Positions 52,222 to 64,000 of a stretch of 64,000 nt of DNA are shown here, piece after piece; the stretch's first letter is position 1; every line of letters starts with the position of its first letter. The notes under the pieces were generated by a model, which did no database searches, had not been told where the DNA came from, and worked only from the letters and a program-made list of their open reading frames with translations. The position numbers and the translations under genes are program-made. Source of the stretch: Halomicrobium zhouii (GTDB lineage Archaea > Halobacteriota > Halobacteria > Halobacteriales > Haloarculaceae); the NCBI RefSeq assembly GCF_900114435.1, contig NZ_FOZK01000002.1, positions 248,001 to 312,000 on the forward strand, in the 5' to 3' direction.

Positions 52222-53224
52222 ATGAGTCTCGAACCAATCGACACAGAAACCGCACTCGAACTGTAACTCGTCGATAAGGAGAACGGACTCTCGGAGGCAT
52301 CTCTGAAGGGGCACAGGTACCGGCTCGGTCACTTCGTCCGCTGGTGCAACGAGGTCGAGGACATCCAGAACCTCAATACACTCAACAGACGCCAACTCCA
52401 CCGGTACCGGCTCTGGCGGCGAGACGACGGTGACCTAAACAAGGTAAGCGAGAAAATCCAGATGGACACGCTCCGCGTGTTCATCAGGTGGCTGGAGTCC
52501 ATTGACGGCGTAAACCAAGACCTGAGTCAGAAGGTACTGTCGCCATCGATCACCCCTGATGAGAACTCCCGAGACGGGATGCTGGAAAGCGACCGCGCTT
52601 CGGAAATACTCGCACACCTAAGAAGTACGAGTACGCCAGTATCGAGCACGTCGCAATCGGACTCATGTGGCACACGATGATGCGTATCCGTACCATACAT
52701 GCCCTCGACGTTGACGATTACGACTCAGACGAACAATCGGTAAAGGTTCGTCACCGACCAGAGGCCGGCACGCCGATAAAGAATCAGGGAGAAGGTGAAC
52801 GGAGGTTCGCACTTTCGTACCAAGTCTGCGACCTCCTCGATGACTGTCTGGAAACCCAGCGACCGTCAGTCATCGACGAGTACGATCGGGAGCCACTGCT
52901 GGCATCCCGGCAGGGTCGAACGAACAAGACCACACTTCGCGCCTACGTCTACCGCTGGACGCGGCCATGCGCTTACAGCTCTGAGTGTCCACACGACCGC
53001 GCGGTCTTGGAGAGTGTGAAGCGATTGGTCACGATGCGGCACATGCGTGTCCGTCAAGCGGTTGCCAACACGCGATTCGTCGCGGAAGCATCACCTACAG
53101 TCTGAACAGTAATATGACGGACAAGGTGGTTAGTGATCGAGCGAACGTCAGTCAGAGAGTGATCGAACAGCATTATGACCGGCGCACCGAGCGAGAAAAG
53201 TGGAGTAACGCAGGGATTACTTAG
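52222..53224 (+). pseudogene. Tyrosine recombinase/integrase, inactivated
   Basis: It begins MSLEPIDTETALEL, then an in-frame TAA at about 52264, and continues LVDKENGLSEASLKGHRYRL. A frameshift near 52620 leads to YEYASIEHVAIGLMWHTMMR with the first catalytic Arg, and another near 53010 leads to the HAIRRGSITYSLNSNMTD segment and IEQHYDRRTEREK with the catalytic Tyr. All parts of a haloarchaeal XerC/D-type integrase are recognisable but three lesions prevent expression. Confidence 0.8.
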
Positions 53225-53328: not shown

Positions 53329-54642
53329 ATGCAGGTCCCAGCATGGTTATCAATAGTTGCTGGGGCTGCAACTATTCTCGGGACAGTCATTGCGGTTCAT
53401 AAGTTTGTCATTCGACGTCCGCGGCTTCAACTCGCCCCTGAATCAAATGATGGGGTTAGGATTAAGGAACAAGTAGCTGGGAACCTTTCTTTTAATCTAG
53501 CCAATAACGGATACAGCCACGCTGAGGACGTATATATAGAGATCTCGTTACCCTCGTGGAATTTTACTGAGGGGGATCCAAACAATAGCGGAATCTCATT
53601 TTCTGACTCAATGATCGATGTTGACCATGAGAAAGATGGTTATCTCGGTGCAACAGGGGAGCGCCACAGAATCTGGGTAACAAATATGCTCCACTCCAAA
53701 TCCAGCTTTGACTTTATAACAGCCTCTGTTCGGCTTGAAGAGTTCCGAGAGTACACTGTGAGCTACCGTATTGGATGTCGATCATACAGCCCTAGGAAGG
53801 GGAAAATCACTATCCAGTCAAAGTACGATGGATTCGAAATTAAACACTACCCGCCGAGATTCTATCGTAGTTGGATTAGCCAATTTAGAACTACTATACG
53901 AGAGGGGGTGTCCTGGATACTACCTGATGCACTATCCATCGTTTATGCACAGATTGAAGAATCAGATGTTATCACCGTGAGAAAGTCCTTCTTTGAATCA
54001 CAAGCTTTCCCAATTGTGATTGTTGACACACTATATCGAAATCGAAAACCCCTTTCAGTCAATCTCAAAGGCACGATATCGACCGATTCTGGTGATGTTC
54101 TGGGGACGCTCGAATTAACTGCAAACTCGGTTAATCCGGGGGACCGATGGGTAGCAACGCCTACCGATCTTCACAGCTACGCCTTAAGATCTTTACCTGC
54201 TACCTCAGATTATCCGGCATTTTCCAAAATGCCGCTACGTCTAGATCCCACCGTTCCACCATATCTACATAATCCTAAACACCAGATTTCCATCAGCTGG
54301 GAGGCAGAGATCGATCATCCTGAGAAGGGGGACATGCGTGGAATAGAGATTAATCAAAGTAGCCTTTCAGTCCAGGAATTCAGGGGTTCTACACATGCAA
54401 AACTATCTGTGGAGATTCAGAATGAGAACCACAGTTCAAAGTCATTCTTTGTGGTTGGGCGTTTGTATACCTCGACTGATCTCTTGATAGCTACCCCGTC
54501 GAAGCACATCGCTATGGATGCGCAAGAATCGAAGGAACTCCACATCTCTACTCGCTTGCCAGGATTTATACAACCGCCAGAAGATGTGGAGGTTGTCTTA
54601 CAGAGAACACAGTCGTCTTCTGTAGAAGATTTCGATGTGTGA
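53329..54642 (+). CDS. Membrane-anchored protein of unknown function, A/T-rich
   Basis: 437 residues. One N-terminal membrane helix (LSIVAGAATILGTVIAVHKF) and a large cytoplasmic or surface beta-rich domain. No motif recognised. Its low GC compared with most of the window suggests transfer. It is the first plus-strand gene of the defence cluster and may be an effector with an unrecognised fold. Confidence 0.6.
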   Translation: MQVPAWLSIVAGAATILGTVIAVHKFVIRRPRLQLAPESNDGVRIKEQVAGNLSFNLANNGYSHAEDVYIEISLPSWNFTEGDPNNSGISFSDSMIDVDHEKDGYLGATGERHRIWVTNMLHSKSSFDFITASVRLEEFREYTVSYRIGCRSYSPRKGKITIQSKYDGFEIKHYPPRFYRSWISQFRTTIREGVSWILPDALSIVYAQIEESDVITVRKSFFESQAFPIVIVDTLYRNRKPLSVNLKGTISTDSGDVLGTLELTANSVNPGDRWVATPTDLHSYALRSLPATSDYPAFSKMPLRLDPTVPPYLHNPKHQISISWEAEIDHPEKGDMRGIEINQSSLSVQEFRGSTHAKLSVEIQNENHSSKSFFVVGRLYTSTDLLIATPSKHIAMDAQESKELHISTRLPGFIQPPEDVEVVLQRTQSSSVEDFDV

Positions 54643-54908: not shown

Positions 54909-55694
54909 ATGAAAGGTGGTCTGCCATTTGGCTACACCAGCGCCTCTGTAGCAGAAATTCGAGAGAATATCGATACTGAAGCAGCTGTAGTTTGCCTCAA
55001 AGACACCGCTGTTGACCACCCTCGTGTTCTCATAGAAGCGTTCATTGAATGCATCCCCGACCTCCTAAGTTGGCTTGAAACAAATGGGCGTGACTATCCT
55101 TGGCGCCAGACCACTGACCCTTGGAAAGTCTATAGCGCTGAAATTCTGCTCCAGCGAACTCGCGGGGATGCAGTCGCTGATATCTATGACGACTTCCAAG
55201 ACCACTTCCCCACTCCTCGAGATCTCTATGAAGCCTCTGAAGAGGAGATCAGGGAAATGGTCCACTCGCTTGGCTTCGTAAACCACCGAACCCGGACCCT
55301 AAAGGAGATTGGCGAGCTTTTTGTTGAGGAGCATGCTGGGAAGGTCCCTGACTCTCTTGATGAGCTCACACGCCCCTGGCGAGCCGGAACCTACTCCGCC
55401 CGGGCCTGCCAACTTTTTGCCAGGGGAGAGCCGCTGGCCCTAGTTGACGCCAATTATTCACGTGTTATCGGACGGGTGCTGGGTTACCAGATGCCTGACC
55501 AACCGCACAAGAGCGACGATGTATACGAGTTAATGGAAGCACTGGTCCCCAAGGAGCCCGGGCTGGCACGAGCATTTAACTTTGCCATCCTTGATCTGGG
55601 GGCACTGATCTGTACCCCCCAGAATCCTAGATGCGAGACTTGTCCGCTCCAGAATGCCTGTGTATATGCCGGAAAACAACAGTTGACCGACTGA
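54909..55694 (+). CDS. MutY/Mig-type DNA glycosylase with an iron-sulfur cluster
   Basis: 261 residues. HhH-GPD core: DYPWRQTTDPWKVYSAEILL (with the MutY-like Glu), QRTRGDAVADIY, the hairpin region PWRAGTYSARACQLFARGEP, and LVDANYSRVIGRVLGY with the catalytic Asp. The C-terminus has C-x6-C-x2-C-x5-C (CTPQNPRCETCPLQNAC). Such glycosylases next to restriction systems repair T-G mismatches made by deamination of 5-methylcytosine, so this gene hints at a cytosine methyltransferase linked to the DISARM genes. It could also be an A-G MutY. Confidence 0.78.
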   Translation: MKGGLPFGYTSASVAEIRENIDTEAAVVCLKDTAVDHPRVLIEAFIECIPDLLSWLETNGRDYPWRQTTDPWKVYSAEILLQRTRGDAVADIYDDFQDHFPTPRDLYEASEEEIREMVHSLGFVNHRTRTLKEIGELFVEEHAGKVPDSLDELTRPWRAGTYSARACQLFARGEPLALVDANYSRVIGRVLGYQMPDQPHKSDDVYELMEALVPKEPGLARAFNFAILDLGALICTPQNPRCETCPLQNACVYAGKQQLTD

Positions 55695-55810
55695 ACCTTA
55701 CGATTACAGATCGTTGAATCCAACGCTTACCTCTCGAAACCCGATAGACATCCCCACGGGGGCACCAAACAGCTAAGGGGAGGCCGAATAAATGAGATTT
55801 CAGACTATAA

Positions 55811-58800
55811 ATGGTTCATATGCCAGACCGAGATCTGGGGCGTACCAAGGATCTCGAGCAGATTTCTTCACGGATAGTTTCCGAGGTCCGAAACCGGGCG
55901 ACAGGCGGCCACTATGAGATCGGTGAGATACATGTGGGTAGCGCCCCGAAGAATACGTTCTTCTCGGGTTGTCTCTCCCCCGGGACAGAGGAGCTAGAGT
56001 TCGAGGATGACGACATCTATTCGAGGGCCTCTCCCAGTGCTCTCCATATGCTGATCCGCGTGGCGCCAAGCGTCAACGGCGCTGCATTCGCTATCGACCC
56101 TTCCTTCAGTGTATACGCCCGCGTCCATCCGCCAAGATATGCTGACGTCCAGACAACTGACCGCGGTTACTATCGCAAGTACAGCGTTGATGTAGAGCCG
56201 ACCACTGTAAAGACACGCTCTCCAGAAGCGGGTGAAGAAGCAATCTCGGCCGACCTGGAGGACGCTGAGGAAGATATCTCCCAGGCATTGCAGAAGGCAT
56301 TGGAAGCGGTTCGAGATGAAATGGCAGCGGATCCGCTACGCTACCGCCCGGAGTCGAATCAAGACGTTCGGGAAGCCATCGTCGAGGATCGGTTTGCTGC
56401 ACAGTCTGAGTACGAAGAGTTCGTAGATGGAGTCGAGGGTAAGGCAGTGTATCCCGATATCAATCCGAGGATAGCTTTCGATCTGCGCGGGATCGATGAC
56501 GGGGACCTACAACTCCGAGTGAGTCTAGAGAACAGGTCTGACGAACCCGAAAGCGGTCAGCTGGATGACGTTGACAACGGTATGTACGAATCCCGACTCC
56601 GGCTTTTACCGGAGGGTGGATCTAGATTTGATCATATCAATTTCACCCGTCTTCCGGAAGACTACCGCTACAATCGTGAGCTCCCGGGATATGGGGTAAA
56701 TTGCTCGGTTGAGCAGCCCGAAGGGTCGGACGCCCTCGTTACAAATTGCATGCCGTCCCATGAGCAGAAGCGTTACATCCACAAGGAGCCCGATCGGGAC
56801 GCTGCCCGGCCGCTGTTCGATCATCTGGCAGAGGACCCGTTGCCGGTCCTCCGAGCATTGCGCGATGAGATGAAAGAATACGATTCGGGGACCTGGAAGG
56901 ATCGAATCGATGAACTGCGCGAGGGTGACGGGGATCTAGAAACAGCTCAGCAGAACCGCGAGGCCTTCCAAGAGGAGATCGCCCGCCTTGAAAGCGGGAT
57001 CAAACTACTGGCCGAGCACGATGAGGCACTCCGCTCGTTCAAGCTGATGAACCGGACATTCGACCGAAAGGTTCTGCGGGAGGATGGTACACGAGACTAC
57101 GATTCCTGGCGTCTCTTTCAGATTGTCTTCATCGTTGCCAATATCCGTGATATCGTCGCCCGGACTGATGAGTCCGTTCAGACCGATGCCCGAGAGGAAG
57201 TGAGCCTGATCTGGTTCCCGACTGGTGGCGGGAAAACGGAGGCATACCTCGGTCTGATGATCTTCAACATGCTGTTCGATCGTCTCCGAGGCAAGGCCTT
57301 CGGCGTCACCTCATTGATGCGCTACCCGCTCAGGCTGCTGAGTCTCCAGCAGTTCCAGCGCATCACTGAACTCATGATGTATGCCGATGAGGTCCGCCGT
57401 GAGCAATCTCTGGGTGGAGATCCGTTCGAGGTCGGTTATCTTACCGGGGGGACCGAGAACAAAATGCGGGACGTAATCGAAGAAGAGTTCGGTAGCAAGG
57501 CCGTCAGTTATAGCGACCAAGAGGGCAATCAGAAAAAAGTAGAAAATCTTGCGCAACGCTGGGAGTCTGACAATCTAAATAATATCTCGAAAGAAGAGTT
57601 CCGCGTTCTCAACCGTTGTCCGAAATGTGGAGGGGACGTAAGTCTCGAAGTCGACGCTAAAGAGGTTCAGATCAATCACATCTGTACGAACGAGTCGTGT
57701 ACTTGGCACCGGCTCCCGGTCTATGTAGTGGACAACGAGATCTATCGAAAGCTTCCGACGCTGATCATCGGGACCCAGGACAAGCTGGCCGGGCTGGGAT
57801 ACGAACGCAAATTCCGACTTATGCTGGGCTATGCAAGTGAGGAGTGTCCTGAGCACGGCTACACCGACGGGACTGCCTGCACGGAGAAGTATTTCTGTAC
57901 GGAGAGTGAGCAGACCCACACCAATCTTGATCCGGTCGATCCGGTTCCAGGTCTACAGATCCAAGACGAGCTACACCTGATCAAGGAAGAGCTGGGGACT
58001 TTCGAGAGTCACTACTGGGGAGCGATGAACAAAATCATCGAGTGGAGCGGAAACACATCTTCGAACGTTATCGCAGCAACCGCGACCATCGAGGAATTCG
58101 AAAACCAGATCAGGCACCTCTACAAAAAAGAAGGTTCACTGTTCCCTGCACCTGGCCCAGACTACAGGGAATCATTCTACGCCGGTGAGGATCCAGAGGA
58201 GGTTCAGCGCCATTTCATCGGGATTACACCTTGGAACCGGTCACACATCAATAGCATCATCAGCATCATACGAGCCCACGAGGAGGCCATCCAGACACTC
58301 AATCAAAACGCGGAGAAGATGGTGTCCGATCGGGACTACCGGACCCTGGATTCGGCCGGGGAGCTGCGGGAGATGCTCAGGTATTACGATACGGCTGTTA
58401 ATTACGTCATCAGCAAGAAGGAAGGTGACAGGATCAACCAGTCTGTCAACACCCAGATCAACCCAGATCTGCAGTCAGCCGGATTCGAGCGGATAAACCA
58501 GCTCAGCCTGACCGGAGACAGCAGCTTCCAGGCGGTCTCGAGTATGCTGGATCGCTTCGAGTCCTTGGCCGATGACCCGTCGCTACAGGACCAAACAGAG
58601 GACCTGATTATCGCAACTAGCACTATCAGTCACGGAGTGGACCTGGACGTACTGAACTTCATGCTGTTTTTCGGAATGCCCAGACGTACCGCGGAATATA
58701 TCCAGTCAAGCAGCCGTGTGGGCAGGAAGTATCCGGGCATCGTTATCGATTGCTTCCATCCCATCCGAGAACGCGATCGGAGTCACTTCCATTACTTCGA

Positions 58801-59266
58801 CAAATACCACGAATACCAGGACCGACTTGTCGAGCCTGTCCCGGTAAACCGGCGGGCTAAATTTAGCATTCAGCGAACGCTTCCAGGTCTGTTCATGGCG
58901 TTGATTCTACAGCGCTACTACGGCGAGATCGAAGCTGAGTACGGTTCCCCGTACATGACTAGCAATGTGGCCAATGCCCACTCGAACGGCCTCATCACCC
59001 AGCAACAACTCATGGACGACTTGGACGATATCTATAGCGACTGGAATGGCGACAACGTATTCAGAGACGAGATAAGCCACCGCATCGAAACGTATCTGAC
59101 CGCTATCGATAAACAGCAGAAGAAGTTCGTGAGCGATAGCCTCCCGGATGGAAACCGGCCAATGTGGAGCCTGCGAGACGTTGATGTCCCTGTCGACATC
59201 TTCACCAGTCGGGAGGAAGGAAAAATTGTTGATACGATTAACGCTGGCCGAGGTGATGGAGCATGA
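55811..59266 (+). CDS. drmA: DrmA-like DISARM helicase
   Basis: 1151 residues. A long N-terminal domain, then a superfamily 2 helicase: Walker A FPTGGGKTEAY (about 470-480), an inserted zinc ribbon CPKCGGDVSLEVDAKEVQIN...C, DELH (about 719), motif III AATATIEEF, and SSSRVGRKYPG (about 966). Size, zinc insert and the downstream DUF1998 gene are those of DrmA. In DISARM, DrmA and DrmB form the complex that senses and processes foreign DNA. It overlaps drmB by ATGA. A Dpd-type helicase is a less likely alternative. Confidence 0.82.
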   Translation: MVHMPDRDLGRTKDLEQISSRIVSEVRNRATGGHYEIGEIHVGSAPKNTFFSGCLSPGTEELEFEDDDIYSRASPSALHMLIRVAPSVNGAAFAIDPSFSVYARVHPPRYADVQTTDRGYYRKYSVDVEPTTVKTRSPEAGEEAISADLEDAEEDISQALQKALEAVRDEMAADPLRYRPESNQDVREAIVEDRFAAQSEYEEFVDGVEGKAVYPDINPRIAFDLRGIDDGDLQLRVSLENRSDEPESGQLDDVDNGMYESRLRLLPEGGSRFDHINFTRLPEDYRYNRELPGYGVNCSVEQPEGSDALVTNCMPSHEQKRYIHKEPDRDAARPLFDHLAEDPLPVLRALRDEMKEYDSGTWKDRIDELREGDGDLETAQQNREAFQEEIARLESGIKLLAEHDEALRSFKLMNRTFDRKVLREDGTRDYDSWRLFQIVFIVANIRDIVARTDESVQTDAREEVSLIWFPTGGGKTEAYLGLMIFNMLFDRLRGKAFGVTSLMRYPLRLLSLQQFQRITELMMYADEVRREQSLGGDPFEVGYLTGGTENKMRDVIEEEFGSKAVSYSDQEGNQKKVENLAQRWESDNLNNISKEEFRVLNRCPKCGGDVSLEVDAKEVQINHICTNESCTWHRLPVYVVDNEIYRKLPTLIIGTQDKLAGLGYERKFRLMLGYASEECPEHGYTDGTACTEKYFCTESEQTHTNLDPVDPVPGLQIQDELHLIKEELGTFESHYWGAMNKIIEWSGNTSSNVIAATATIEEFENQIRHLYKKEGSLFPAPGPDYRESFYAGEDPEEVQRHFIGITPWNRSHINSIISIIRAHEEAIQTLNQNAEKMVSDRDYRTLDSAGELREMLRYYDTAVNYVISKKEGDRINQSVNTQINPDLQSAGFERINQLSLTGDSSFQAVSSMLDRFESLADDPSLQDQTEDLIIATSTISHGVDLDVLNFMLFFGMPRRTAEYIQSSSRVGRKYPGIVIDCFHPIRERDRSHFHYFDKYHEYQDRLVEPVPVNRRAKFSIQRTLPGLFMALILQRYYGEIEAEYGSPYMTSNVANAHSNGLITQQQLMDDLDDIYSDWNGDNVFRDEISHRIETYLTAIDKQQKKFVSDSLPDGNRPMWSLRDVDVPVDIFTSREEGKIVDTINAGRGDGA

Positions 59267-61056
59267 AGCGCGGCCTAAATCAGGTCCTGTTCCAGTTCAT
59301 GCCGGGCAAAACTTTCGATAACCCCCAACATCAGATGATCGAAAAGGTAGCCCAGATCGGTGGCGAGGACATTAGCGACGAGGTCAACGATGAGCATCTC
59401 AAAAAACGGGTGTTTGCCGCAATCAATGAGTGGGAAGGTGGCAGCAGGGAGTACCTCACTAGAACTCTTGACAATTATTCGATCATCCAGCCTGAGGATG
59501 TGATCAGTGAGGTTTTCCCACTAATCCTGCGATGTGATAATTGCTATGCCGTTGAGAACTATTGGCGTCGGCGTGAGTCGCTCAAAAACGGCTCAGTAGC
59601 CTGCTCGAACTGCGAAAACTCCAGCCTTCATCAGCTCCATCACGTCCTGATCTGTGAGGAGTGTTCCGCCATCGAAGCGATGTCGGTGCCACCATGTGAT
59701 GAACACGACTGGAACTATGTCAAGCTCGATGACAGTGCCGAGAGCTATCGTAATTTCCGATGGCGATGTGGCAAATGCGAGCAAGAGGGCAAGGAAGCGA
59801 CCATTCGCTCTGGACTGTATAGTAATTGTGACGACTGCGGGAATACCCTTCAGCCAACAGTCCACCGGGCCTCACAGGCATATCGCACCCACCATCTGAA
59901 GCAGGTCGACATTAATTTCGAGTATGGCCTTTCGGAAGACGAAGAGAATCAGGCAATCTCCGACATCGCCCTTGGGGCGGCCTACGGAATCTACGACCAC
60001 CCGGAAAACGAGATCTCCTTCTACCGGGACAAACAGGAGGGTGGAACAAACCAGATTGAGGAGCTTTTGGGCAGTGATATCGTTGATGAGGGGCAGAAAG
60101 AAAAGATACGCGACCAGTTCAGCGACGATCTTAAGGCTAGTGGCGAACTGACACAGATCCTGAACGAACTCGAGGAGATCCGCCTTACGAAACGGAACAT
60201 CTCACGGAACCATTTCAACTACCTGCGAACCCTTGAAGAAATCAAGACGGAGACACTCGATGAACTGGATTCTGATGTCGGCGGACCGAGCCAAACATCA
60301 GCTGACGTGCTTGAACAATTCGGTGTTAGTGACCTTCGACTCACCAGCGAGTTCCCTATTCTGACGGCCGTATATGGGTACCACCGGACATTCGATGAAC
60401 CAGAGGAAGACAGTCATCCCGCATTGCGAGCCTTCCCTTTCACCCAGGGTAAGGACACCATCCCGATATATGCCACTAGTTCCGATACTGAAGCAGTGTT
60501 CCTGACACTCGATCACCGACGGGTCGGGGAGTGGCTGGCAGCTAACGATCTTCTGGATGGCAGTATTGATGACCTCAGCGACCAAGAACTCCGGGCACTG
60601 ATCCACGCGGAGATGGATCAGATGAAACCCTACCTTGATGTTGATGAGATGACTGAAGTATCTCGATATGTCCACGGCCTCTTGCACACACTGAGCCATC
60701 GCCTTATTGAAGAGGCAGCATTGCTCTCGGGGATCGAAGAGACGAGTCTGGCAGAGTTCCTTTTCCCCGAGGCGCTTTCGGTAGCAATCTATTCGAACCA
60801 GACCCATTCGTTTACAATTGGTGGCCTGTACACTTTGGCCGAACGGTCGTTAGAAGAATGGTTCGAGTCCGTCCAGCAGGAGTCCGAGCACTGTATCTAT
60901 GATCCGATCTGCGGCGAGCAAGGGGCCAGCTGTCATGCCTGTACTCACATCAGTGAGATTGGTTGCCAGCACTTTAATCAGAACTTGAGCCGTGGATTCA
61001 TCTTTGGGGGGACTAACCAGGAAATGCCTATAACAGGCTACTGGGACGATTTCTGA
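59263..61056 (+). CDS. drmB: DrmB-like DUF1998 protein
   Basis: 597 residues. N-terminal half with zinc knuckles (CDNCYAVENYWRRRESLKNG...CSNC, CEEC, CGKC, CDDC). The C-terminal DUF1998-type region (about 465-590) has LLHTLSHRLIEEAALLSGIE and Cys-rich YDPICGEQGASCHACTHISE. It overlaps drmA and drmC by a few bases, so the three are co-translated. DrmB binds DrmA and DNA in characterised DISARM systems. Confidence 0.82.
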   Translation: MKRGLNQVLFQFMPGKTFDNPQHQMIEKVAQIGGEDISDEVNDEHLKKRVFAAINEWEGGSREYLTRTLDNYSIIQPEDVISEVFPLILRCDNCYAVENYWRRRESLKNGSVACSNCENSSLHQLHHVLICEECSAIEAMSVPPCDEHDWNYVKLDDSAESYRNFRWRCGKCEQEGKEATIRSGLYSNCDDCGNTLQPTVHRASQAYRTHHLKQVDINFEYGLSEDEENQAISDIALGAAYGIYDHPENEISFYRDKQEGGTNQIEELLGSDIVDEGQKEKIRDQFSDDLKASGELTQILNELEEIRLTKRNISRNHFNYLRTLEEIKTETLDELDSDVGGPSQTSADVLEQFGVSDLRLTSEFPILTAVYGYHRTFDEPEEDSHPALRAFPFTQGKDTIPIYATSSDTEAVFLTLDHRRVGEWLAANDLLDGSIDDLSDQELRALIHAEMDQMKPYLDVDEMTEVSRYVHGLLHTLSHRLIEEAALLSGIEETSLAEFLFPEALSVAIYSNQTHSFTIGGLYTLAERSLEEWFESVQQESEHCIYDPICGEQGASCHACTHISEIGCQHFNQNLSRGFIFGGTNQEMPITGYWDDF

Positions 61057-61913
61057 TGGAGTTAGCCGACTTGCTTGCTCTTGAACAGAAGCTACGGCGT
61101 GAGGGAACGACAACCGAGACCCTTCTGGGGTACTGTCTGTACCTGAACGGGAAGGAAGTCGTGGCTCTTGGCCAGCGATTCCAGACGGAATTTGACATCA
61201 GTGATCGGCAGGCCTCGGATCTGATCGAGTGGTTGGAATATCTGGGTGTGGCTAGATTGGACGAACGGAACAATATCTCGTTTCAGAGTGACAGGCTCCG
61301 AGAACTTCTCACGCGGGTCGAGTGGCTCTTCGATGAGCATTCCCTCGACCAGCTTTCTCGAGCGACAGTTGAGAATCCCGACCAGGTCAGGCCAATCCTG
61401 AACGTCCCAGAAGAGACCGATTTTGATGTCGATTCGACCATCATCGGTTCGCTCATAGACCTGCTGGCCACTGCTGAGGACTCGGCGGTTGTCATGAACC
61501 CTTTTTACACACAGGTGGGCTTCGACCTGCTGCAGGAGGCACTGGTGGGCGTCCCGAAACGAGGGGCAAGCTTGACCCTTATGACACGTGATGTGTTGCA
61601 GGGGACTGGTGAGAACCGCAATTATGTCCGCCAGCTCGTCGAACAACTTGAATCCGTGGGGCGGTCTCACCACCTGTCAGTATATGAATTCAATAGTGAA
61701 CTCCACAACACGGCGACGTTTCACGCCAAGGCTGTCATAGTTGATCGTCAGCAAGCGTACATCGGGAGTGCAAACATGACTGAGAGAAGTCTCCGGAACG
61801 CGATTGAGATGGGGACAATCATCGAAGGTAAGTCAGTTCCACCACTTGCAGATACTGTTGAACAAATGCTCACGTCGGATCTCTGGCTCGGTGTCGACTT
61901 GGATGACGTCTAG
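61056..61913 (+). CDS. drmC: DrmC-like phospholipase D-family nuclease
   Basis: 285 residues. One HKD motif, FHAKAVIVDRQQAYIGSANM (about 222-241). The N-terminal half is winged-helix-like (FDISDRQASDLIEWLEYLGV). PLD nucleases act as dimers, so one motif per chain suffices. Start TGATG overlaps the drmB stop. The cluster ends here; no drmD, drmE or methyltransferase follows on this strand. Confidence 0.82.
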   Translation: MELADLLALEQKLRREGTTTETLLGYCLYLNGKEVVALGQRFQTEFDISDRQASDLIEWLEYLGVARLDERNNISFQSDRLRELLTRVEWLFDEHSLDQLSRATVENPDQVRPILNVPEETDFDVDSTIIGSLIDLLATAEDSAVVMNPFYTQVGFDLLQEALVGVPKRGASLTLMTRDVLQGTGENRNYVRQLVEQLESVGRSHHLSVYEFNSELHNTATFHAKAVIVDRQQAYIGSANMTERSLRNAIEMGTIIEGKSVPPLADTVEQMLTSDLWLGVDLDDV

Positions 61914-61996: not shown

Positions 61997-63514
61997 TCAG
62001 GTAATTGAAACGTTGATCTCGATCAGTCCGTTTTCGCACAACCCCTCCAGTGTTTCGACTGGGTCTGCCTCAATCTCCTCCTCGCATTCGGCCCTGATAT
62101 TGGAGTACGACAGATCGGAGCTGGCTGCCGAGATCGTCAGCAGCTCCTCCAGCAGCTGGGCCTGTGGCTCTGGCAACTGCTCCCGGACTCTAGTCCTAAT
62201 TTCGATGTAAGCATCGGCATAGCGATGCGAATACTCGAGGAGGGTATCAACATCCTTCTCACTGGCTGCACTTGTGAATAGGTCCGTGAAGTCCTCATCC
62301 AATTCGATGTCGAACTTGTCCTTAAGCCGTCTTGCAGTCTTGATCTTCCCGACCAATCTGGAGCGCAAAGCGGTGCGTTTGTCGCTTGCCCGCTCGAGAC
62401 ATTCGACCAACTCCGCTCCTGCGCTTTCTATTCCCTCGACGGAGATTGCCTCAAGGGCCCTTGATTGGCAATCTTGCGCCTCAGTGTAGAGGGTCTGGAT
62501 TTTACTGGCAGCCTCCTCGAGCTCTTCAATCGCTGGCTCACCATCCGTGCTATACATCTCGACCGGGCTTTGCAGGATTTCAATTAACGCCTCTAGGCCG
62601 TCTCCTACAGTCTCTATCGCTGAGGCATATGATTTGAGAGAGGGATCTGTGCTCAATTCCTCAGCAAGCAGATCCAAGATTCGTGACTGCTCATATTCGA
62701 TATCTTCGGGAATTCGTTCGTATTGAGTTTCTACCCGGGCCCACGCTTTGTCGATGTCATTCAGGGCCTCTTCGATGCGTTCGTGTCGATTGTCGACTAA
62801 GACTGCAACCTGCTGCAGGCCGTCCCGATCATCCACATCTTCTTTTAGCCCCTCGATCAGGACGGTCCAGATACGCTCGTTGAGTTCGTCTCCAATATCG
62901 AGGTCGTAATCAAGCGTCCAGTCGCCATGCCAGCCTTCCTCTAGCAATCGTAGAGCGTCACCGATATCGTCCAGATCAGACGGTGCGTTCGCGTCTGATA
63001 TCGCTGTCCGCAGTAACTGATCTATGTCTCCCTGCAGTTTACCCAGGTCACCGCGGAGTTCGTCATGGGCGGTCTTTGCTGTACTGACCGCCTCTTCACA
63101 GGTATCAACATCGCTAATAATGACTTCTCTGAGCGACCGCTTCTCATTGCTGTCAAGCAGTTCAAGCCCGGTTGAAGCCAGCCAGCTGTCGATCTCCTCG
63201 ACGACGGATTCGGCCTTTGGGTTGTCTAATACCTCCTGAATGTCTTTGTGAACCTCTCGAACCGCCTCAGTGAATGTCTCGATTTCGCACCCATCATCCA
63301 GCAACGCCTGCAGGTCGGTCCTGACCCCATTGTTGTATGTCTCCCGGATCTGGTCGACCTGGTCGGGTTCTAATTCCGAGTCTGAGCCCAGCGTGTCTGC
63401 GAGTTCATCACGGAGTTGCTCGGTTTCCTTCTCGAGTTCACTGTGTCGCCCGATTAGGGAGTCATAGTCCCTATCCTGCGAAAAATCCACTAGATCAGCA
63501 AGGGGTGCAGTCAT
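61997..63514 (-). CDS. Long coiled-coil protein, unknown
   Basis: 505 residues, almost entirely predicted alpha-helical and acidic with heptad patterns (LEKETEQLRDELADTLGSDS; IETVGDGLEALIEILQSPVE) and a short beta/helical C-terminus (SNIRAECEEEIEADPVETLE). No nucleotide-binding motif. Converges on drmC with an 83-base gap. It overlaps the next upstream gene by ATGA, so it belongs to a minus-strand operon entering from the right. Confidence 0.6.
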   Translation of the reverse strand: MTAPLADLVDFSQDRDYDSLIGRHSELEKETEQLRDELADTLGSDSELEPDQVDQIRETYNNGVRTDLQALLDDGCEIETFTEAVREVHKDIQEVLDNPKAESVVEEIDSWLASTGLELLDSNEKRSLREVIISDVDTCEEAVSTAKTAHDELRGDLGKLQGDIDQLLRTAISDANAPSDLDDIGDALRLLEEGWHGDWTLDYDLDIGDELNERIWTVLIEGLKEDVDDRDGLQQVAVLVDNRHERIEEALNDIDKAWARVETQYERIPEDIEYEQSRILDLLAEELSTDPSLKSYASAIETVGDGLEALIEILQSPVEMYSTDGEPAIEELEEAASKIQTLYTEAQDCQSRALEAISVEGIESAGAELVECLERASDKRTALRSRLVGKIKTARRLKDKFDIELDEDFTDLFTSAASEKDVDTLLEYSHRYADAYIEIRTRVREQLPEPQAQLLEELLTISAASSDLSYSNIRAECEEEIEADPVETLEGLCENGLIEINVSIT

Positions 63515-64000
63515 TGTTCCTCCATCAGGCCATCGATCTCGATAAGTGTGTTCTGGACACTGTTCCTTTTCTGACCCATCTGTTCGAGTTTATCAACTGT
63601 TCCCCCGAACTGTTCAATCGGTTCACAGAGGGACTCAAGACGTTTTCGGCACTCAGATATCTGGGAGTCCCATTCGTCGAGCTTACTTTGAGGTGATCCA
63701 TCCTCGTCGGTGAAATCAATCTCGGGAAGTTCATGCCGTAGCTGTACAATTTCTTCGTCCCATGCCTCCTCGAGATTCTCGGTCATTGTTGCTTGGTCAG
63801 GTACGTCAACCTCGACACCCGTTGCCTCGAGACGTTCATAGAGATCCAGTAGTTCCTCTACCTCCCGCTGACAGCGGGATTCGAGAGCTTCAATCTCCTC
63901 AAGGAGTTCATCGACGCGTGTTCGATGGTTAAATAGCGTCTCTCGGTACTGCTTCAGGTTGTACTCGAGCGTCGTGAAGACGCTTGTGCGCACGGCCCGA
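63511..64000 (-). CDS. Coiled-coil protein, probably truncated by the window edge
   Basis: At least 160 residues of charged coiled coil (YRETLFNHRTRVDELLEEIE; ECRKRLESLCEPIEQFGGTV). A GTG at 63993 could start it, but the frame remains open to the edge, so the N-terminus may lie outside. It pairs with the 505-residue gene. Two adjacent coiled-coil partners suggest a multi-subunit machine. Confidence 0.5.
   Translation of the reverse strand, partial: RAVRTSVFTTLEYNLKQYRETLFNHRTRVDELLEEIEALESRCQREVEELLDLYERLEATGVEVDVPDQATMTENLEEAWDEEIVQLRHELPEIDFTDEDGSPQSKLDEWDSQISECRKRLESLCEPIEQFGGTVDKLEQMGQKRNSVQNTLIEIDGLMEEQ

What the first reader, a model, noticed from the sequence alone, without database searches (positions are those of the whole stretch)
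54909..61913. DISARM core drmABC with a MutY-like glycosylase and no methyltransferase in view
drmA, drmB and drmC overlap and look intact. Known classes add drmD or drmE and an adenine or cytosine methyltransferase, none of which is in 53-64 kb. The upstream Fe-S glycosylase is of the type that repairs deaminated methylcytosine next to cytosine methyltransferases. Either the modification gene is beyond 64 kb, or this is a variant in which the glycosylase replaces or complements it.
Basis: partly seen in the sequence, partly recalled or inferred. Interest (0 to 1): 0.7.

Follow-up and report, generated by a model that had tools for sequence, protein, structure and literature searches.

The report
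Archaeal DISARM with mismatch-repair glycosylase
This is a DISARM antivirus island of a salt-loving archaeon whose supposedly missing DNA-methylating genes lie just past the end of the window, and whose extra enzyme most likely repairs the mutations that this methylation causes, so the puzzle has a mostly ordinary answer with two small new twists.

Summary
The puzzle dissolves in the genome. A DrmE-family gene starts 3.1 kb past the window end and two C5-cytosine methyltransferases start 7-9 kb past it; they are the only C5 methyltransferase (PF00145) matches in the whole genome. The part 'complements it' is supported. The enzyme is not MutY: at diagnostic positions it matches Mig.Mth, the thymine-DNA glycosylase that repairs deaminated 5-methylcytosine. 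In 391 Halobacteria genomes its close relatives occur in 20; all 17 other intact copies sit beside a C5 methyltransferase, and nine of the 20 genomes lack drmA. It follows the methyltransferase, not DISARM. Two features look new: Mig-type repair genes recur in C5-type haloarchaeal DISARM, and the DISARM methyltransferase carries a fused EndoIII-like domain that lacks its catalytic Asp here. An unnamed three-gene ATPase module sits between drmC and drmE but also occurs without DISARM.

The parts
54909..55694 (+). Mig-type (thymine/uracil-DNA) glycosylase, HhH-GPD + 4Fe-4S, 261 aa
   Evidence: Pfam HhH-GPD and EndIII_4Fe-2S over cut-off; best PDB hit 1kea Mig.Mth E 5e-37; diagnostic residues E42/R47/small-50/Y126/D144/N146 as in Mig
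55811..59266 (+). drmA, YprA-type helicase, 1151 aa
   Evidence: PADLOC DrmA 1.4e-163; NF038325 9e-132
59263..61056 (+). drmB, DUF1998-type, 597 aa
   Evidence: PADLOC DrmB 6e-46; NF038324 1e-26
61056..61913 (+). drmC, PLD nuclease, 285 aa
   Evidence: PADLOC DrmC 2e-15; PLDc_2 over cut-off
61997..64000 (-). start of an inserted three-gene module of unknown name (505 aa complete at 61997-63514; the 567 aa gene runs out of the window to 65214; the 558 aa AAA-ATPase-like gene is at 65211-66887, outside). Not counted as part of DISARM
   Evidence: ORFs; homologous module without DISARM in G014, G289, G029 and G359
63999..64000 (+). marker for parts OUTSIDE the window (L004 position + 60000): drmE-family 1222 aa at 67137-70805 (+); C5 MTase 742 aa with N-terminal EndoIII-like domain at 70952-73180 (+); C5 MTase 457 aa at 73185-74558 (-); integrase remnant at 75541-76473 (+)

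Best explanation
The locus is a C5-methylcytosine (class 2-like) DISARM island of a haloarchaeon (same genus in the tool's taxonomy as a genome that matches Halomicrobium katesii). Its parts are drmA-drmB-drmC in the window, and a DrmE-family gene and two tandem C5-cytosine methyltransferases just outside it. Inferred mechanism: the methyltransferases mark host DNA with m5C. DrmAB loads on unmethylated or single-stranded-end foreign DNA and blocks or degrades it, helped by DrmC. The standalone Mig-type glycosylase removes thymine from the T:G mismatches that form when the m5C mark deaminates; it is a genome-maintenance accessory of the methyltransferase, not an antiviral effector and not a replacement for the methylase. 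Shown here: gene content, residue pattern, conserved linkage to C5 methyltransferases. Inferred: catalytic activity, substrate, methylation motif, antiviral function.
For: drmABC matches. Only two PF00145 matches in the genome, both in this island. DrmE family E 5e-12, and its homologs sit beside drmA in related loci. The N-extended methyltransferase (MT742) occurs in 20/391 genomes, 19 of which carry drmA (p=1e-17). Closest same-content loci run drmE-drmA-drmB-drmC-[glycosylase]-MT742 (L037, L041; L039 lacks the glycosylase). The second MTase falls with those that stand in tandem with MT742 elsewhere (95/98). Glycosylase: 1kea best PDB match, Mig-type residues unlike the genome's own MutY at C3:514400, adjacency to a C5 MTase in 17/17 other intact copies. 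Mig.Mth sits in the same context on plasmid pFV1. Chang et al. (PMC2714593) for the diagnostic residues; Bravo et al. (PMC9142583) for the DISARM model.
Against: In this genome the glycosylase is about 15 kb from the methyltransferases and about 116 bp upstream of drmA, so co-transcription with drmA cannot be excluded. It groups with glycosylases of type II R-M systems (89/92, moderate) rather than with DISARM-linked ones, so it may have come from another system. The DrmE match is below the curated cut-off (44.8 against 80 bits). Position Mig-L187 is Phe here. Three unrelated genes split drmC from drmE.
Confidence: 0.82

Rival explanations
1. The glycosylase is a restriction arm: it excises bases from foreign DNA (as PabI-type restriction glycosylases do) and feeds abasic sites or breaks to DrmAB/DrmC.
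For: Sits about 116 bp upstream of drmA on the same strand; PADLOC labels its family 'type II nicking endonuclease'; base-excision restriction exists in other systems (PMC10273834).
Against: Its relatives sit beside type II R-M systems that have their own REase (EcoRII-C-like and BsaWI-like) and beside C5 MTases without drmA. Residues match a mismatch-specific thymine glycosylase. In other DISARM loci it stands on the opposite strand to the drm genes.
Confidence: 0.1
2. The glycosylase is a leftover of a type II R-M system that once stood in the island and has no current role with DISARM.
For: Groups with R-M-linked glycosylases (89/92); displaced from any methyltransferase here; the wHTH gene and REases that accompany such copies elsewhere are absent from the searched flanks.
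Against: Intact ORF with all catalytic residues; the genome still has two C5 methyltransferases; the nearby C5 MTase is of the DISARM-tandem type, not the R-M type. A repair enzyme without strong sequence specificity could serve any m5C source.
Confidence: 0.25
3. It is a second A/G-specific adenine glycosylase (MutY) unrelated to methylation.
For: NCBIfam mutY is its best named family (E 5e-43).
Against: Score 148 against the curated cut-off of 286 bits; no C-terminal MutY domain; Val45/Gln182 signature absent (Gly and Phe); the genome has a separate MutY-like gene at C3:514400.
Confidence: 0.04
4. A methyltransferase-free DISARM in which the glycosylase replaces the mark.
For: None beyond the window view.
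Against: Two intact C5 MTases and a DrmE-family gene within 13 kb of drmC.
Confidence: 0.02

Closest known systems
DISARM class 2 (drmE, drmA, drmB, drmC, drmMII; Ofir 2018, Bravo 2022)
   Same: drmA, drmB, drmC, a DrmE-family protein and a C5-cytosine methyltransferase in one island
   Different: Haloarchaeal; DrmMII has about 310 extra N-terminal residues with an EndoIII-like fold; a second C5 MTase in tandem; a Mig-type glycosylase; DrmE is long (1222 aa) and below NCBI's cut-off; drmC and drmE are split by three foreign genes
Mig.Mth of Methanothermobacter thermautotrophicus pFV1 with its NgoPII-family R-M system
   Same: HhH-GPD 4Fe-4S thymine glycosylase near a C5 MTase; same diagnostic residues
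   Different: Here the linked methyltransferases belong to a DISARM island, and about 40-50 extra N-terminal residues are present
Vsr repair endonuclease beside Dcm-type methyltransferases
   Same: Same inferred purpose: repair of deaminated m5C (general knowledge)
   Different: Unrelated fold and chemistry

Membership tests
DISARM (core) | drmA helicase, drmB DUF1998 and drmC PLD nuclease together | tested here: met
DISARM class 2 | C5-cytosine methyltransferase (DrmMII) in the island | tested here: met
   PADLOC DrmMII hits 2e-68 and 3e-86 (general type II MTase models score higher); the only two PF00145 matches of the genome are here
DISARM class 2 | drmE | tested here: inconclusive
   NF038316 E 5e-12, 44.8 bits under the cut-off of 80; homologs lie beside drmA in several related loci
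DISARM class 1 | drmD SNF2-type helicase and adenine methyltransferase DrmMI in the island | tested here: not met
   no match among the genes of the window's right end and the 16 kb beyond it; the rest of the genome was not searched for DrmMI
DISARM | protects against viruses | not testable with these tools
   needs virus challenge
Mig.Mth-type thymine-DNA glycosylase | HhH-GPD + 4Fe-4S with Glu42, Arg47, small residue at 50, Tyr126, Asp144, no Gln at 187 | tested here: met
   Phe instead of Leu at 187 in the window copy
Mig.Mth-type thymine-DNA glycosylase | linked to a C5 methyltransferase | tested here: met
   17/17 other intact copies adjacent; in the window genome about 15 kb away
Mig.Mth-type thymine-DNA glycosylase | excises T from T:G | not testable with these tools
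   needs enzyme assay
MutY | Val45/Gln182 signature and C-terminal domain | tested here: not met
EndoIII fold (N-terminal domain of the 742 aa methyltransferase) | HhH-GPD fold | tested here: met
   model pLDDT 80; Foldseek top hits all HhH glycosylases; Z 14.8 to 8a5g, rmsd 4.4 over 210 residues; independent profile match E 2e-5 to 8a5c
EndoIII fold (N-terminal domain of the 742 aa methyltransferase) | catalytic Lys and Asp, 4Fe-4S Cys | tested here: not met
   In the window: Arg at the Lys position, Ser at the Asp position, no C-x6-C-x2-C-x5-C. Asp is kept in 17 of 20 relatives

The most novel reading that the evidence does not exclude
In haloarchaeal C5-type DISARM, base-excision chemistry is built into the defence. 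The EndoIII-like domain fused to the DISARM methyltransferase reads or excises bases at target sites, and the standalone Mig-type glycosylase either shares that task or protects the host from it, giving DISARM a base-excision arm not described before.
Probability: 0.08. Interest if true: 0.75.

Novelty: new variant of a known kind. Interest (0 to 1): 0.4.

Why it matters
It shows that a DISARM that looked methylase-free is ordinary once the flank is read. It also suggests that m5C-based DISARM carries a mutation cost which haloarchaea repeatedly pay for with a dedicated thymine glycosylase, as R-M systems do with Vsr or Mig. The fused EndoIII-like domain on the DISARM methyltransferase gives a testable idea for how that methyltransferase or DrmAB could read methylation or mismatches.

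Tried and rejected
A DrmA pattern scan of named genomes found no relatives (limited by short exact patterns); replaced by the genome search. The fold of the 558 aa ATPase failed (pLDDT 50) and was not used. Profile searches of the 558 and 567 aa module proteins and of the 137 aa fourth gene against PDB gave nothing reliable. A direct profile-profile comparison of the fused EndoIII-like domain with the standalone glycosylase family was not significant, so close kinship between the two is not claimed. No direct repeat longer than 14 bp was found between the island's flanks. wHTH, REase and small-nuclease genes that accompany relatives elsewhere are absent from the island and its flanks. Literature searches found no paper that links DISARM with a mismatch glycosylase (open-licence library only).

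Full report
Observation. The glycosylase is at 54909-55694, drmA at 55811-59266, drmB at 59263-61056 and drmC at 61056-61913. PADLOC, Pfam and NCBIfam name the three drm genes and the HhH-GPD glycosylase. On reading, the key motifs are present: DrmA has GGGKT and DELH, DrmC has HAKAVIVD. None of the main genes in the window's last 18 kb looks like a methyltransferase or DrmD/DrmE.

Outside the window. The window is part of contig C2 of a 4.25 Mb haloarchaeal genome. A search of that whole genome for C5 methyltransferases (PF00145) gives two matches, both 8-11 kb past the window's end. Reading the flank and scanning its proteins gives, in window-equivalent coordinates: three minus-strand genes of 505, 567 and 558 aa (61997-66887); a DrmE-family protein of 1222 aa (67137-70805, E 5e-12, below the curated cut-off); a 742 aa C5 methyltransferase (70952-73180); a 457 aa C5 methyltransferase (73185-74558); and an integrase-like remnant (75541-76473). 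The last is related to the remnant at 52665-53105, so related integrase remnants lie on both sides of the island.

What the glycosylase is. Its best solved relative is Mig.Mth, 1kea (E 5e-37). Chang et al. (PMC2714593) list the residues that separate Mig from MutY. In a joint alignment the window protein and 16 close relatives carry Glu42, Arg47, a small residue at 50 (Gly/Ala/Ser, never Val), Tyr126, Asp144 and Asn146. Position 187 is Leu in most and Phe in three (window included), never the Gln of MutY. The genome's own MutY-like protein is a different gene (C3:514400). I infer thymine/uracil excision from mismatches with G. Activity was not tested.

What it goes with. Three searches over the same 391 Halobacteria genomes give drmA in 52, the N-extended methyltransferase (MT742) in 20 and the glycosylase (E <= 1e-45) in 20. 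MT742 is tied to DISARM: 19 of its 20 genomes have drmA (p=1e-17). The glycosylase is in 10 of the 19 drmA genomes with MT742 and in 1 of the 33 without it (p=5e-5). Where MT742 is absent it shows no association with drmA (p=0.61). These p-values treat genomes as independent, which they are not fully. All 17 intact copies other than the window's lie immediately beside a C5 methyltransferase: eight beside an MT742, eight beside a relative of the 457 aa enzyme, one beside another C5 enzyme. One of these (in G114) has an uncertain start; two further copies (G092, G134) are fragments and were left out. Several of the second group are type II R-M systems with a small winged-helix gene and a restriction enzyme of EcoRII-C or BsaWI type. 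Mig.Mth itself sits in such a system on pFV1. So the glycosylase follows m5C methylation, and DISARM only through its methyltransferase.

Order in the closest relatives. The window genome is a scrambled version: glycosylase upstream of drmA, three foreign genes after drmC, then drmE and the two methyltransferases. The window's 457 aa methyltransferase groups with those that stand in tandem with MT742 in other loci (95/98). The window's glycosylase groups, less firmly (89/92), with those of R-M systems. The glycosylase may thus have reached the island from an R-M system.

The fused domain. Residues 1-315 of the 742 aa methyltransferase have no Pfam match. The alignment of 20 relatives gave a good model (pLDDT 80) whose best structural matches are all EndoIII/Ogg/MutY-type glycosylases (Z 14.8 to 8a5g). 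An independent profile search found D. radiodurans EndoIII-1 at E 2e-5. In the window protein the catalytic Lys position is Arg and the Asp position is Ser; Asp is kept in 17 of 20 relatives. No 4Fe-4S Cys pattern is present. The likeliest role is DNA binding or base sensing for the methyltransferase; an active glycosylase in the relatives is not excluded. A pattern scan of 84,980 species returned ten loci, all haloarchaeal.

Mechanism. Established for DISARM elsewhere (PMC9142583): DrmAB acts on unmethylated DNA with 5' overhangs and m5C lowers its ATPase rate. Applied here by inference: the two C5 methyltransferases mark self, DrmAB/DrmC/DrmE act on unmarked DNA, and the Mig-type enzyme repairs T:G mismatches that the mark itself generates.

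Limits. No activity, methylome or expression data exist here. DrmE is below cut-off. The genome sample is one genome per species and part of the class. Literature was searched only in an open-licence library.

Noticed in passing
window 61997-63514 (-) and on to window-equivalent 66887 (L004:1997-6887): Three-gene module (558 aa AAA-ATPase-like, 567 aa, 505 aa) with no Pfam, PADLOC or NCBIfam name. It recurs without DISARM in G014, G289, G029 and G359 with a fourth 136-139 aa gene that has a PD...ExE-like pattern (L091, L092, L093, L090); that gene was not found in the window genome's island or in G140. Candidate unnamed defence module.
   Followed up: partly
L071, L073, L075, L078, L080, L082: Haloarchaeal drmABC loci that carry both a long Eco57I/DrmMI-like adenine methyltransferase gene (1371-1487 aa) and the N-extended C5 methyltransferase; some also have a 905-973 aa protein, one of which (L105, 911 aa) shows a weak GHKL ATPase match.
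   Followed up: partly
L004:13185-14558 with L075, L079, L106, L107: A second C5 methyltransferase in tandem with the N-extended one recurs in five genomes and forms its own group apart from R-M relatives.
   Followed up: yes
L036:2064-2318, L090, L096, L097, L100: An 84 aa winged-helix protein sits just upstream of Mig-type glycosylases in haloarchaeal R-M systems, possibly their regulator.
   Followed up: no
window 52665-53105 and L004:15541-16473: Related integrase remnants on both sides of the island; no long direct repeat found.
   Followed up: partly
window 53329-54642: 437 aa protein with no family match between the integrase remnant and the glycosylase.
   Followed up: no
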